Under the pieces are notes generated by a model. The model made no database searches and had not been told where the DNA came from. It saw nothing but the letters and a program-made list of their open reading frames with translations. The position numbers and the translations under genes are program-made. From contig NC_133123.1 in assembly GCF_033568475.1 (NCBI RefSeq), positions 155,821,753 through 155,885,752 of the forward strand: a stretch of DNA of 64,000 nucleotides, read 5' to 3'. Every line of letters starts with the position of its first letter. Positions within the stretch are counted from its first letter, which is position 1. This document shows positions 15,719-33,436 of the stretch, piece after piece. This DNA comes from Henckelia pumila (lineage: Eukaryota > Streptophyta > Magnoliopsida > Lamiales > Gesneriaceae).

Positions 15719-16876
15719 ATGGCGAGCCAAGGTTTGCCGGAGGACGTGGTGATTGAAATACTGGTGCGTCTTCCGGTGAAATCCATACAAAGATTCAAAA
15801 GCGTTTCGAAATCATGGCGAGATTTGATCAGGAGCTCTATGTTCATCGATCGGCACCACAAACGCGACGGGAAACAGAGGGTGCTTCTTTTGAAACGCTC
15901 TTTCTTGCTCCAAGACAGATGCAGGAACGTATTTTCCTTCCACGATCCAGATTTTCCACAAGCGTCGTCGATCTGGCCGGATCTGTCGATCCCGATTCCG
16001 GATGATTTGGAATACATTCACGCGCCTGTCACAGTTCACGGTCCTTGCAATGGGCTCGTTTGTGTTTCACTATGCGAAACTGTTGTCTTGTGCAATCCGG
16101 CATTGCGACAATTCAGGCCGCTTCCTCCCCGGGACATCGAGTATCCAGAGGGTTATCTTGCCAGAAATTTGGAAAATGGGTTCGGATTTGACCCAAACAC
16201 CGGTGCTTACAAGTTCGTCCAATTCTGCGAAATCCGTCATAGAAAGGGCCGCTTTCGCGACAGGTCCAAGTACCCTTTGAATTGTACGATGAGGATTGAT
16301 TTGTACAATTCAGCCTCGAATTCATGGAGGCAGATTGATCCTCAACTTCCTCTAGATATGGTTTGGTGGTTTCCATGTTTCCAGCTCTTTTTTAATGGCG
16401 CCATTCACTGGTCTGCGACCCTTGACAATCAAGCAGGGCATTCCATCCTTTGTTTCGACATGAGCACCGATGCTTTTCGAGTGATGGACTATCCCGACGA
16501 TTTAGACAAAATAAATCGATCCCACCGGAGCCTGATGGTGTTAAACGAGAGCCTCGCGATGGTTTTGCATCAACCACCGAAACAAGGGGCGCAACTAGTC
16601 GATATTTGGGTGATGAACGAATACGGGGTGACGGGATCGTGGACGAAACAGTTCGTCATCGGGCCTTACTCCATTGCTTGCGCACTTGTGTGTCTGAGGG
16701 ATGAGTGGTTGCTATGTGAATCTGAGAATGGCCAGTTGATAGCTTGTGCACTCCACAAATACAAGTTCGAGGAATTTCAATTGTACGGGCGTGAAAAGTC
16801 ACCGAGAGCCATGGTTTACGAGGAAAGTTTGATTAGTTTGGAAATGGTGATTCCAGGAGATGGCATGCATGAGTAG
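15719..16876 (+). CDS. F-box/FBA protein, S-locus F-box (SLF)-like
   Basis: An intact single-exon frame of 385 residues ending in TAG. An N-terminal F-box (residues about 5-42, LPEDVVIEILVRLPVKS, then RFKSVSKSWRDLI) would bind SKP1 in an SCF ubiquitin ligase. The rest is an F-box-associated (FBA) domain for substrate binding, with GPCNGLVC, LCNPALRQFRPLPP, GFGFDPNTGAYKFV, LCFDMSTDAFR and DIWVMNEYGV. This order, the intronless structure and the length match the SLF/SFB and SLF-like family, in which SLF proteins recognise S-RNases in pollen; many FBA proteins outside the S locus share these motifs. GC content is higher than the surroundings. S-RNase-like gene fragments lie 13-17 kb downstream. 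Functional class is therefore sure at F-box/FBA level and tentative at SLF level. Confidence 0.9.
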   Translation: MASQGLPEDVVIEILVRLPVKSIQRFKSVSKSWRDLIRSSMFIDRHHKRDGKQRVLLLKRSFLLQDRCRNVFSFHDPDFPQASSIWPDLSIPIPDDLEYIHAPVTVHGPCNGLVCVSLCETVVLCNPALRQFRPLPPRDIEYPEGYLARNLENGFGFDPNTGAYKFVQFCEIRHRKGRFRDRSKYPLNCTMRIDLYNSASNSWRQIDPQLPLDMVWWFPCFQLFFNGAIHWSATLDNQAGHSILCFDMSTDAFRVMDYPDDLDKINRSHRSLMVLNESLAMVLHQPPKQGAQLVDIWVMNEYGVTGSWTKQFVIGPYSIACALVCLRDEWLLCESENGQLIACALHKYKFEEFQLYGREKSPRAMVYEESLISLEMVIPGDGMHE

Positions 16877-17136
16877 ATTACCAGCAGTTGTCACTGGGTT
16901 TGATTTTATTAGACATGTTTATTTAAATAATCTAAAATTCCACCTATGTGATGTTTAATCAATCATATTTATTGTGATATGATTGATGCTTAAAATTTGT
17001 TACCGATTCCATAAATTACTAGCCATTATGATACTAGATGTTGAACAAATGTGTTTTGGTGAAGTTTTTCAAAATATTAACTAAGCGGATAAAATGACTA
17101 AGAACTAAAATCTACTTAATACTATCCCTATAAATA

Positions 17137-17710
17137 GAGTTGAAACCGGGAGGGTTGTGAGTGAGTGGAGATTTGAGAAGGATGGGACTGACATGGATCC
17201 CTCGGGAGCAACCTTCTTGGGCCTGGATGACAATAGGTTGTGCCGATGGGATATGCGTGATCGCAAAGGAAGTGCCCAGAATATAGTGAACGGGAGCACC
17301 CCTGTATTGAATTGGACTCAGGGGCATCAGTTTTCAAGGGGGGACTAATTTCAGTGCTTTGCAACCTCTGGTGATGGATCCATTGTGGTCGGGTCACTTG
17401 ATGGCATGATTAGGCTGTAATCGATAAGTTCTATGAGGCAGGCCAAAACCGCATTTCCAGGACTTGGTTCGCCTATTACTCATGTGGACGTCACCTATGA
17501 TGGGAAATGGATCTTGGGAACCACTGATGCTTGATTCTCATATGTAGTCTGTTTTCAGATAAGGATGGGAAGGTAAAAACTGGATTCGCTGGTCTCATGG
17601 GGAATAGAATCTCGGCACCGAGGTTATTAAAGTTAAATCCTCTAGATTCACACATGGCCTGGGCAAACAACAAGTTTCGCAATGCTCAGTTCTCGTGGGT
17701 ATGTGAGCTT
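17137..17710 (+). pseudogene. VID27-like (DEM/CYPRO4) gene fragment
   Basis: Three-frame reading gives successive pieces typical of the C-terminal WD-like domain of plant VID27/DEM proteins: VVSEWRFEKDGTD, FLGLDDNRLCRWDMRDRKG, NGSTPVLNWTQGHQFSRG, SIVVGSLDG, SMRQAKTAFPGLGSPITHVD, TYDGKWILGTTD, LICSLFSDKDGK and RLLKLNPLDSH. The frame is broken by a shift near 17340 and stop codons near 17420 and 17532, and a block after KDGTD is missing. The last part runs into a GTATGTGAG donor-like site, so it looks like a copied genomic fragment and not a processed copy. No flanking parts of the gene were found. Confidence 0.8.
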
Positions 17711-17837
17711 TGGAATTTTCATACTTCATTTATCTTTGGTGACCTTTATCATTCATAGGCAGTCTTGTTTGCATCTCTTCTTACAGCTTTGTATTCAATT
17801 TTGTATATTATTTGACTAGTCTTATTAACTCATAAGC

Positions 17838-17842
17838 TTTTC
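17838..17842. repeat. Target-site duplication of the gypsy element (left)
   Basis: TTTTC, repeated at 24012-24016 directly after the 3' LTR. Confidence 0.85.
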
Positions 17843-31694: not shown

Positions 31695-31761
31695 CATAAT
31701 TTATTTCTATCAAGTTATAGATTTAAAACAATAACCACCTCTTTTCGATAAAATTAATTTA

Positions 31762-33030
31762 TGGTGCATTGGTGCCACACTTGCGGAAGGATTTAAAAAG
31801 TATGTAGAAAAAAATCCTACATATAAGAAACATTTTCAGCGACTTGATATAGTTGATCCAAGTATTGTTGATACAATCAGCATATTAGAATTATGAAATA
31901 AGAGCATGAAAGTCATCACGTTATAATATTTCTAGATCAATATTTTATAGTTGCGGCTAAACTGTTAGCATGTTATATCAGAGGTATGTTTCACACCAAT
32001 ATATTAATATTATATTTTGAATGAATTTTACTTAGTTTATAATTTCAAAACTTAGCAATATGTGGTTTAGTTATTGATAGTCGTGATTATGACTAAATTT
32101 TTTTTTATGTAAGACTGTCTTTACCTGACAAAGAACTTGACCTTGTAGACGAGGCTACTGCAATTGCAAGAGCTCAGGTTTGCAGTCAGCCCAAAGATTT
32201 GGGTGATATAAAAAGAAATATATTTAAGTTGGGGTTAAACTGTGTTATTCTGATAAACAAAATAAAAAATATTAGAAATGTTCGGCTGGTTGAAAAAGTG
32301 AGTACAAATTTTCCATTGTAAATGAAATACTACTACTATATTCATTTATTCAATGTTTCTTACTGTGACATTTTCCCTTGAATTGTAACAATATTTCTGG
32401 TAAAAAAAAACTTGATGTATTGAGGGATACTATTTCATCACTGGAGATGATGTACAAGGAAAGACAAGAATCCAATATGTTCAAGAGGTAAAAAAAGAAT
32501 AACTACATTTCAAAATGTGATTTGACTAGCTGAGAAAACTTGAAATTGCTGCGAAATATCAATATTTTCTCATGACAACTCTAAGATTGTAGAACTAGAA
32601 ACAATATCAAATAAAAATAAAATGCTTGATTTGACAGTCGACCCTAATCAGATTGCTAATGTTGTGGCTCGTTGGACTCGTATACATGTCTACATATTGG
32701 ACGAAATGAAAAGGAGAGATTGATTCGTCTCTCTAAGATGTTGCGCCGCCGAGTTGTCGGGCAAGATGGGCAAGATGAGGCTGTTAAAAGTGTAGTTGAT
32801 GTTGTTATAAGACCAAGAGTTGGACTTGGATTGCCCGAAAAACCAACAGACTCTTTTTTTTTCTTTTTGGTTCAACTGGTGTTGGCAAGATGGAGCTTTT
32901 CAAAGCTTTGGAAGAAGAGTTGTTTGATGACCATAGTTTAATGGTTCGAATTGATATGTCAAAATATATGGAAAAACACTCTATTTCTTGACTGATACGT
33001 GCTCTTCCGGTGTAAGTTAAAATTATTTAG
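31762..33030 (+). pseudogene. ClpB/HSP101-like fragment, right arm
   Basis: Plus-strand pieces: FKKYVEKNPTYKKHFQRL, VDPSIVDTISILE, LSLPDKELDLVDEATAIA, VDPNQIANVVARWT, ERLIRLSKMLRRRVVGQD, VGLGLPEKPTDSFF, GSTGVGKMEL and FDDHSLMVRIDMSKYMEKHS. This is the late NBD1, middle and early NBD2 part of a ClpB/HSP101 disaggregase, with introns apparently retained. Several frames are broken. The protein end is missing here but appears, in decayed form, in the tandem array at 49-62 kb. Confidence 0.8.
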
Positions 33031-33188
33031 TTAGTTTGTTTCAAATTCTATGAGTCAAATTTAGAAGTTAAATTTCACTTCAGGTAACTAGCTAGAAACA
33101 CTTGCATATATGCATGCACACACACATATATATTAATTTAAAGATATATATTAATTAACATGTGATATTTATTTAAAGATTAACACAT

Positions 33189-33436
33189 ACCATGATCGAC
33201 TTGGGGACGGGATGTTGAATAATGCAGTATAACCAAATGGACAGTGTAATTGTCCGGCCATAAACCATGGACGGTGAAGTCTTGTGGTAAAGGATTTTTT
33301 AGGCAATGATACACCTTGCAGAACGATTCAGGCCACAGTCAAACCAATTTAAAATAATCAAAATTTGAAGTAACCAAAATAATAGTTGCAAGCAAGAAAC
33401 GGCGATGGTTAGCAAGTAAGAGAATGTTGTAGCCAT
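33189..33436 (-). pseudogene. RNase T2 / S-RNase-like gene fragment, copy in right arm
   Basis: Starts with an ATG at 33436 and a hydrophobic signal-peptide-like stretch (MATTFSYLLTIAVSCLQLLF). After an apparent one-base deletion it continues FDYFKLV, a TGA stop, LWPESFC, LPQDFTVHGLWPDN and YTVHL, then an ATG/GTATGTG donor-like site. It shares the TGA and the frame slip with the left-arm copy, so the gene was already broken before the arms formed. As in the other arm, only the first exon of an S-RNase-like gene is present. Confidence 0.8.

What the first reader, a model, noticed from the sequence alone, without database searches (positions are those of the whole stretch)
15719..33436. SLF-like F-box gene close to S-RNase-like gene fragments: possible S-locus or decayed S-locus segment
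Seen: an intact intronless F-box/FBA gene at 15.7 kb with SLF-like motif order, and two copies of the first exon of an S-RNase-like T2 ribonuclease (WPxxFC and FTIHGLWP regions, intron donor at the usual place) at 30.1 and 33.3 kb, within transposon-dense DNA. Known: in RNase-based self-incompatibility, S-RNase and many SLF genes are linked in repeat-rich, recombination-poor DNA. Inferred: the window may be part of, next to, or descended from an S locus, with its pistil gene broken in these copies.
Basis: partly seen in the sequence, partly recalled or inferred. Interest (0 to 1): 0.85.

Follow-up and report, generated by a model that had tools for sequence, protein, structure and literature searches.

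The report
Relic of a self-incompatibility gene pair
This stretch of a Henckelia (Gesneriaceae) chromosome holds a decayed copy of a small gene pair related to the plant self-incompatibility locus, with the F-box gene intact and the ribonuclease gene destroyed, while the likely real locus lies tens of megabases away on the same chromosome.

Summary
An intact 385-codon F-box/FBA gene (15719-16876) and two copies of exon 1 of a class III (S-RNase-type) T2 ribonuclease are present. The exons are not independent: they lie in the arms of one 3.4-kb imperfect palindrome (30048-33434), each arm fused to a ClpB fragment and sharing a premature stop; exon 2 was not found. The window lies at C4:155.8 Mb of a genome matching Henckelia pumila. 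The F-box groups with Solanaceae S-locus F-box proteins (97/96). The window is colinear with an intact module at C2:2.717-2.750 Mb (two F-box genes, one single-intron basic RNase), which resembles the published S-like locus of snapdragon chromosome 7. A Ty3-type element and other DNA stretched the interval between matching blocks from 0.27 to 12.4 kb. Genome searches found no other T2 RNase or SLF-lineage gene within 1 Mb. A candidate real S locus is 86-88 Mb away (C4:67.55-69.5 Mb: an intact-looking class III RNase, 17 SLF-lineage loci). So the window is a decayed S-like locus, not the S locus or its neighbour. Unexplained: RNase exon 1 differs from its C2 counterpart far more than flanking noncoding DNA does, as if the copies came from different haplotypes.

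The parts
15719..16876 (+). intact SLF-lineage F-box/FBA gene, 385 aa
   Evidence: ORF; Pfam; tree; dN/dS 0.43 against its C2 relative
15691..17095 (+). block colinear with C2:2716724-2718102 (F-box gene and 3' flank)
   Evidence: blastn 75.6% over 1448 columns
17845..24014 (+). Ty3-type LTR retrotransposon lying between F-box and RNase relic; LTRs 17845-18632 and 23228-24014 are 88.5% alike
   Evidence: LTR pair; gag, protease, reverse transcriptase
29536..29865 (+). block colinear with the RNase upstream region C2:2718372-2718644
   Evidence: 66.7% over 336 columns by blastn; 81.5% of 265 aligned sites, 73 gap columns
30049..30302 (+). class III RNase exon 1 relic, arm A, in the ancestral position; start codon lost, in-frame stop at 30148-30150
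33191..33436 (-). class III RNase exon 1 relic, arm B (inverted copy), frameshifted, same stop
30048..33434 (.). 3.39-kb imperfect palindrome; arms about 1.66 kb, loop about 31712-31746
   Evidence: predicted to fold as one hairpin, all 1487 predicted pairs link the arms (register within 120 nt)
30440..31711 (-). ClpB/HSP101-type chaperone fragment in arm A
   Evidence: Pfam AAA_2 0.0066 (below cut-off) on one piece; 78-91% DNA matches to the AAA_2 array at 48.5-62.2 kb; homologous to arm B
31747..33050 (+). ClpB/HSP101-type chaperone fragment in arm B
   Evidence: PDB phmmer of a 56-aa piece, best ClpB1 7.6e-9
33444..33812 (-). 93% copy of part of the PHD-like gene at 6377-6735, next to arm B

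Best explanation
The window carries a decayed paralogue of a two-gene 'S-like' module: a class III RNase with an SLF-lineage F-box gene just upstream. The module was duplicated between chromosome C2 (2.72 Mb, intact) and C4 (155.84 Mb, here). In the C4 copy the F-box stayed intact, with a pairwise dN/dS that fits constraint. A Ty3-type retrotransposon and other DNA lengthened the interval between the colinear blocks from 0.27 to 12.4 kb. The RNase lost everything from early in its intron onward, where a ClpB fragment now follows, and the chimera was inverted-duplicated. Shown: the gene identities, the colinearity, the decay, and that genome searches list no further S-type genes nearby. Inferred: the F-box protein still acts as a substrate receptor of an SCF ubiquitin ligase, most likely for class III RNases (an S-like SLF of Antirrhinum is reported to inactivate one, PMC8774079, passages), without a working RNase partner here; and this site has no self-incompatibility function.
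For: F-box: clade with Solanaceae SLFs, Coffea/Cinchona and two unnamed proteins, and Escallonia/Ilex proteins 97/96*, Lamiales clade 100/99* (50 rows chosen from 181); AU tests reject two placements with non-SLF groups (p 0.0005 and 0.009); its sister P0002 is letter for letter the C2:2.749 F-box. Colinearity: three blocks in the same order and strand on C2. C2 RNase: both catalytic motifs, one intron, calculated pI 8.75. RNase lineages by DNA: the window arms are nearer the C2:196.68 and C2:2.719 copies (K2P 0.20-0.47) than the C4:67.57 gene (0.60-0.62). F-box window-C2a dS 0.458, dN 0.199, ratio 0.43. No nearby S-type genes listed. Arm divergence 0.139 is below the module's (flanks 0.21, F-box dS 0.46), so the inverted duplication came after.
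Against: No expression or population data. No Antirrhinum SLF was recovered for the tree, and the tree program warned of long branches meeting in its outgroup. The same large clade has only 81 in the 82-row quick tree, and the branch uniting Lamiales with Rubiaceae only 83/87. The exon 1 protein tree resolves class III from class I (100/100) but not relations inside class III. RNase exon 1 is more diverged from C2 than the flanks are, which a single duplication does not predict. The flanking PHD gene is not syntenic with C2:2.7 Mb, so the duplication was small or its flanks were reshuffled.
Confidence: 0.86

Rival explanations
1. The window is a haplotype of, or lies inside, the working S locus.
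For: SLF-lineage F-box and S-type RNase within 15 kb in repeat-rich DNA.
Against: One SLF only; the RNase is dead in both arms and no exon 2 was found; no further RNase or SLF-lineage gene listed within 1 Mb; the cluster of 17 SLF-lineage loci with an intact-looking RNase is 86-88 Mb away.
Confidence: 0.03
2. Chance neighbourhood: one of many F-box genes near an RNase fragment carried in by a transposon or rearrangement.
For: F-box genes are abundant (116 matches); the RNase is fused to ClpB and next to PHD fragments.
Against: F-box, RNase upstream block and RNase exon 1 keep the order and strand of the intact C2 pair, and the F-box is the closest relative of the two C2 F-boxes.
Confidence: 0.04
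3. The palindrome is a young hairpin-RNA locus whose small RNAs act on S-type RNase transcripts; the decay has been put to use.
For: One long hairpin (MFE -2074 against -708 to -842 kcal/mol for 5 control segments); 12 perfect duplex runs of 21-44 nt; 28 arm-to-C2-gene 21-mer pairings with 2 mismatches (overlapping positions counted apart), 2 to the C4:67.57 gene.
Against: No 21-mer matches either intact gene perfectly or with 1 mismatch, and no null was run for these counts. The RNase part is not significantly better kept between arms than the ClpB part (Fisher p 0.16). No promoter or small-RNA data. Hairpins of this kind need no function.
Confidence: 0.05

Closest known systems
S-like locus of Antirrhinum chromosome 7 (S-like-RNase with two S-like SLFs in 33 kb; PMC8774079, section 7 read)
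   Same: Class III RNase with SLF-lineage F-box genes outside the S locus. The intact C2 sister (two F-boxes and one RNase, 2.7168-2.7502 Mb) has about the same content and size.
   Different: The window copy has one F-box, a destroyed RNase and a palindrome. Both C2 F-boxes are intact, whereas one of the two in Antirrhinum is a pseudogene. Orthology with the Antirrhinum locus was not tested.
Pseudo-S locus of Antirrhinum majus (37 SLFs, no S-RNase; PMC6784882, passages seen)
   Same: SLF gene kept while the RNase is lost.
   Different: That is the S locus itself, with dozens of SLFs; here there is one SLF, far from the candidate S locus.
Small-RNA dominance modifiers at the Arabidopsis S locus (PMC13128112, listing and start of abstract only)
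   Same: Small-RNA control in a self-incompatibility setting; that these loci are inverted-repeat hairpins is partly recalled.
   Different: Different system (Brassicaceae); nothing shows that this hairpin is expressed.

Membership tests
SLF subfamily (S-locus / S-like F-box) | N-terminal F-box and FBA domain in an intronless gene | tested here: met
SLF subfamily (S-locus / S-like F-box) | groups with functional SLFs rather than other FBA proteins | tested here: met
   97/96* clade (81 in the quick tree); AU rejects two alternatives; 66 of 66 Solanaceae hits P0087-P0152 score 164-234 bits against it, best rosid hit 154, two Cornales proteins 165-166. No Antirrhinum SLF in the set
SLF subfamily (S-locus / S-like F-box) | linked to a class III RNase | tested here: met
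   only as a relic here; an intact RNase lies beside the sister F-box on C2
SLF subfamily (S-locus / S-like F-box) | pollen expression and RNase binding | not testable with these tools
   no expression data
class III / S-RNase lineage | sequence class III, not I/II | tested here: met
   exon 1 tree of 13 rows separates class I 100/100; SF11 S-RNase best in PDB. No class II sequence was in the tree
class III / S-RNase lineage | no class I intron 2; intron at position 5 | tested here: met
   signal peptide to GLWP is contiguous, whereas a class I gene of this genome (C77) is split there by about 210 bp; the donor lines up by eye with the C2 gene; intron classes from PMC5598434 section 15
class III / S-RNase lineage | complete gene with second catalytic motif | tested here: not met
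   no exon 2 motif in the window
class III / S-RNase lineage | basic protein (pI above 7.5; criterion from PMC4451870, passages) | tested here: inconclusive
   not measurable on the fragment; C2 relative 8.75
S locus | intact class III RNase flanked by several SLFs | tested here: not met
   one SLF, no intact RNase, none further listed within 1 Mb
S locus | haplotype divergence and co-segregation with S phenotype | not testable with these tools
   one assembly only

The most novel reading that the evidence does not exclude
The two modules descend from different self-incompatibility haplotypes of one ancestral S-like locus that was then under balancing selection. The RNase alleles coalesce far deeper (exon 1 K2P 0.42-0.47; mature-part pS 0.66-0.75) than the linked F-box (pS 0.34) and noncoding flanks (0.21), so the window is a fossil haplotype of a second, now lost, RNase-SLF recognition locus in Gesneriaceae.
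Probability: 0.2. Interest if true: 0.75.

Novelty: new member of a known kind. Interest (0 to 1): 0.5.

Why it matters
It gives a stepwise picture of how an RNase-SLF module dies: the RNase goes first, the F-box persists. It also points to a candidate S locus (C4:67.55-69.5 Mb) and an intact S-like locus (C2:2.717-2.750 Mb) in Gesneriaceae. The listings seen (2 of 2 papers; 25 of 158; 8 of 8) show no report of RNase-based incompatibility in that family (open-licence library only). Whether H. pumila ever used this system becomes directly testable.

Tried and rejected
Rejected: two independent RNase copies (they are arms of one palindrome). Rejected: assembly artefact of the palindrome (arms differ at 12.6% of aligned sites). 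Rejected: descent of the window pair from the C2:196.67 Mb RNase cluster. That cluster holds the closest exon copies outside the window (82%), but none of seven SLF-lineage queries had a tblastn hit better than 0.03 in the 200 kb around it (the first try, stopped with a script error on the empty result), while the colinear match is C2:2.72 Mb. Rejected: duplication by a recent whole-genome doubling (H. pumila is reported to lack one, PMC10627561, passages; the PHD neighbour is not syntenic). An apparent third RNase remnant at 29712-29788 lies inside the upstream block shared with C2 and was not counted as a copy. RNase acceleration on one lineage only: relative-rate counts are mostly even (8 of 9 chi-squares below 3.84, one 4.59). 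Led nowhere: padded RNase fragment protein search (3 candidates, none significant); Rfam and tRNA scans (0 hits); PDB search with the F-box (0 hits up to E 0.1); a DNA search of the genome with the ClpB part and a protein search with the UGT (not completed).
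Full report
WHERE IT IS. The window is G000:C4:155821753-155885752 of an 884.66-Mb genome in 133 contigs, and C4 has that length. P0002, named H. pumila, is letter for letter encoded at C2:2.749 Mb, although the database gives its contig as 201,206,415 bp and C2 here has 201,204,019. The species name is an inference from these matches.

THE F-BOX GENE. One intact ORF, 385 aa, F-box plus FBA. It is the only SLF-type sequence in the window by tblastn with nine queries. 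A first protein search gave 86 relatives. A second, started from a recalled Petunia SLF, gave 95, many of them named S-locus F-box proteins. Scored against the window protein, the 66 Solanaceae hits P0087-P0152 reach 164-234 bits, above the best rosid protein (154), with two Cornales proteins at 165-166. In a 50-row tree chosen from the 181 proteins, the window gene lies in a Lamiales clade (100/99), inside a clade with the Solanaceae SLFs, Coffea/Cinchona and two unnamed proteins, and Escallonia/Ilex proteins (97/96) (the program warned of long branches meeting in the outgroup). An 82-row quick tree agrees, but with support of only 81 for that clade. AU tests reject grouping the Lamiales clade with Nyssa/Davidia/Lonicera (p 0.0005) or Actinidia/Rosa/Shorea (p 0.009). 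No Antirrhinum SLF was among the hits.

THE RNASE COPIES. They are in opposite orientation, in the arms of a 3.39-kb palindrome with 87.4% identity over 1649 aligned columns, K2P 0.139. Each arm holds the signal peptide and mature start of exon 1 through the conserved HGLWP motif, then part of the intron, then a ClpB fragment on the opposite strand. Both share an in-frame stop; arm A has lost the start codon and arm B has frameshifts. A motif search found no exon 2 in 64 kb. Class: PDB phmmer puts the N. alata S-RNase far ahead of class I enzymes, though the Pyrus S3-RNase ranks among the latter; the exon 1 tree separates class I at 100/100. Unlike a class I gene of the same genome (C77), there is no intron between signal peptide and WPxSFC, the class III pattern described in PMC5598434 (section 15 read; passages).

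THE GENOME AROUND IT. A whole-genome Pfam search found 28 matching pieces of T2 RNases. A search with the window F-box found 116 matches (107 of 191 candidates were scored, so counts are lower bounds). (a) C4:67.55-69.5 Mb: an intact-looking class III RNase at 67.569 Mb (both motifs, open exons; its splice sites were not settled), RNase pieces at 67.556 and 67.737-67.739 Mb (some with stops), and 17 loci of SLF-lineage F-box genes or fragments from 67.571 to 69.493 Mb (rows merged by me). This is the S-locus architecture described in PMC8774079 (passages; section 7) and PMC6784882 (passages). (b) C2:2.7168-2.7502 Mb: two intact F-box genes (384 and 387 aa; the TAG that one search lists for one is its own stop), each 67% identical to the window protein, and an intact single-intron RNase with both catalytic motifs, calculated pI 8.75. 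(c) Decayed RNase exon copies at C2:196.67 and 194.78 Mb. Apart from the palindrome arms and the window F-box, neither search lists a member of either family within 1 Mb of the window.

COLINEARITY. Window 15691-17095, 29536-29865 and 30037-30372 match C2 2716724-2718102, 2718372-2718644 and 2718738-2719079, same order and strand. On C2 the first two blocks are 270 bp apart; here 12.4 kb, including a Ty3-type element with 88.5% similar LTRs. So arm A is the RNase in its old place and arm B the inverted copy. The match ends early in the intron, where the ClpB fragment follows. The PHD-like gene at 5-7 kb has its nearest other-chromosome relative at C2:132.8 Mb (38%), so the duplication did not carry it, or the flanks were reshuffled. 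Window-C2a F-box: dS 0.458, dN 0.199, ratio 0.43, consistent with constraint (pairwise estimate, not tested against 1).

ORDER OF EVENTS (inferred). The S-like lineage split from the S-locus lineage (F-box dS 1.1-1.3 to the C4:67.57 gene); the module was duplicated; the RNase was broken (stop shared by the arms) and fused to ClpB; it was then inverted-duplicated (0.14). When the retrotransposon came in was not placed in this order (its LTRs differ by about 11%). The paper that describes an H. pumila genome reports no recent whole-genome doubling (PMC10627561, passages), so a small-scale duplication is more likely.

AN UNEXPLAINED CONTRAST. RNase exon 1 differs between window and C2 by K2P 0.42-0.47. 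The F-box 3' flank, the RNase upstream block and the start of its own intron differ by only 0.21-0.22 (mismatches 90 of 258 against 95 of 515, Fisher 7.6e-7). Simulated noncoding blocks with the exon's divergence never reached the observed identity (30 runs each for two blocks; maxima 0.66 and 0.70 against 0.815 and 0.817; the simulated upstream block had fewer gap columns, 31 on average, than the real one, 73; the intron piece of 59 sites was not simulated). In 38 mature codons pS is 0.75 (arm A) or 0.66 (arm B), against 0.34 for the F-box (Fisher 3e-4 and 5e-3). Against a selection story: only about 21 synonymous sites, different GC3 (0.38 and 0.56), the F-box's own dS (0.46) is also above the flanks' 0.21, and ordinary replacement of exon 1 by gene conversion would do the same. 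Deep RNase alleles with shallow linked sequence would fit haplotypes of an incompatibility locus; that is the novel case.

THE HAIRPIN. The palindrome folds as one hairpin (-2074 kcal/mol; five control segments -708 to -842), with 12 perfect runs of at least 21 nt. 21-mers with two mismatches to the intact RNases exist (28 pairings to the C2 gene, 2 to the C4 gene), none closer, and no null was run. RNase and ClpB parts do not differ significantly in how well they are kept between arms (p 0.16). Function is neither shown nor needed.

LITERATURE. 'Gesneriaceae' with 'S-RNase' gave two unrelated papers (listing only). The listings (25 of 158 shown; 8 of 8) gave no report of RNase-based incompatibility in the family. 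The library holds open-licence papers only.

Noticed in passing
G000:C4:67556400-69492793 (L001, L005, L012, L019, L042): Candidate S locus: intact-looking class III RNase with an F-box gene 1.7 kb away, decayed RNase pieces and 17 SLF-lineage loci over 1.9 Mb; two of them recur as an inverted pair at 69.49 Mb with identical scores, possibly an assembly or real inversion duplicate.
   Followed up: partly
G000:C2:2716756-2750240 (L002, L041, L043): Intact S-like module: RNase (calculated pI 8.75) with two F-box genes; the F-box regions are 93% alike.
   Followed up: partly
L017 (G000:C2:194.785 Mb): At least four class III RNase exon-1 pieces in tandem about 200 bp apart.
   Followed up: no
48538-62177: Array of tandem repeats carrying ClpB exon fragments (AAA_2 1e-14 and 1e-16 on two pieces) and long trinucleotide runs; it shares 78-91% similar stretches with the palindrome arms.
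   Followed up: partly
33433-33448: 16 nt at the junction of arm B with the PHD fragment repeat a stretch of the RNase exon itself, perhaps a template-switch mark.
   Followed up: no
29712-29788: Signal-peptide-like remnant (alignment score 63; maximum 44 in 200 random windows) inside the upstream block shared with C2.
   Followed up: partly
17150-17750: Fragment resembling a WD-repeat (VID27/CYPRO4-like, name recalled, untested) gene just after the F-box.
   Followed up: no
40198-41773: UDP-glycosyltransferase gene in two ORFs (PF00201 on one of them; intron or frameshift not resolved).
   Followed up: no
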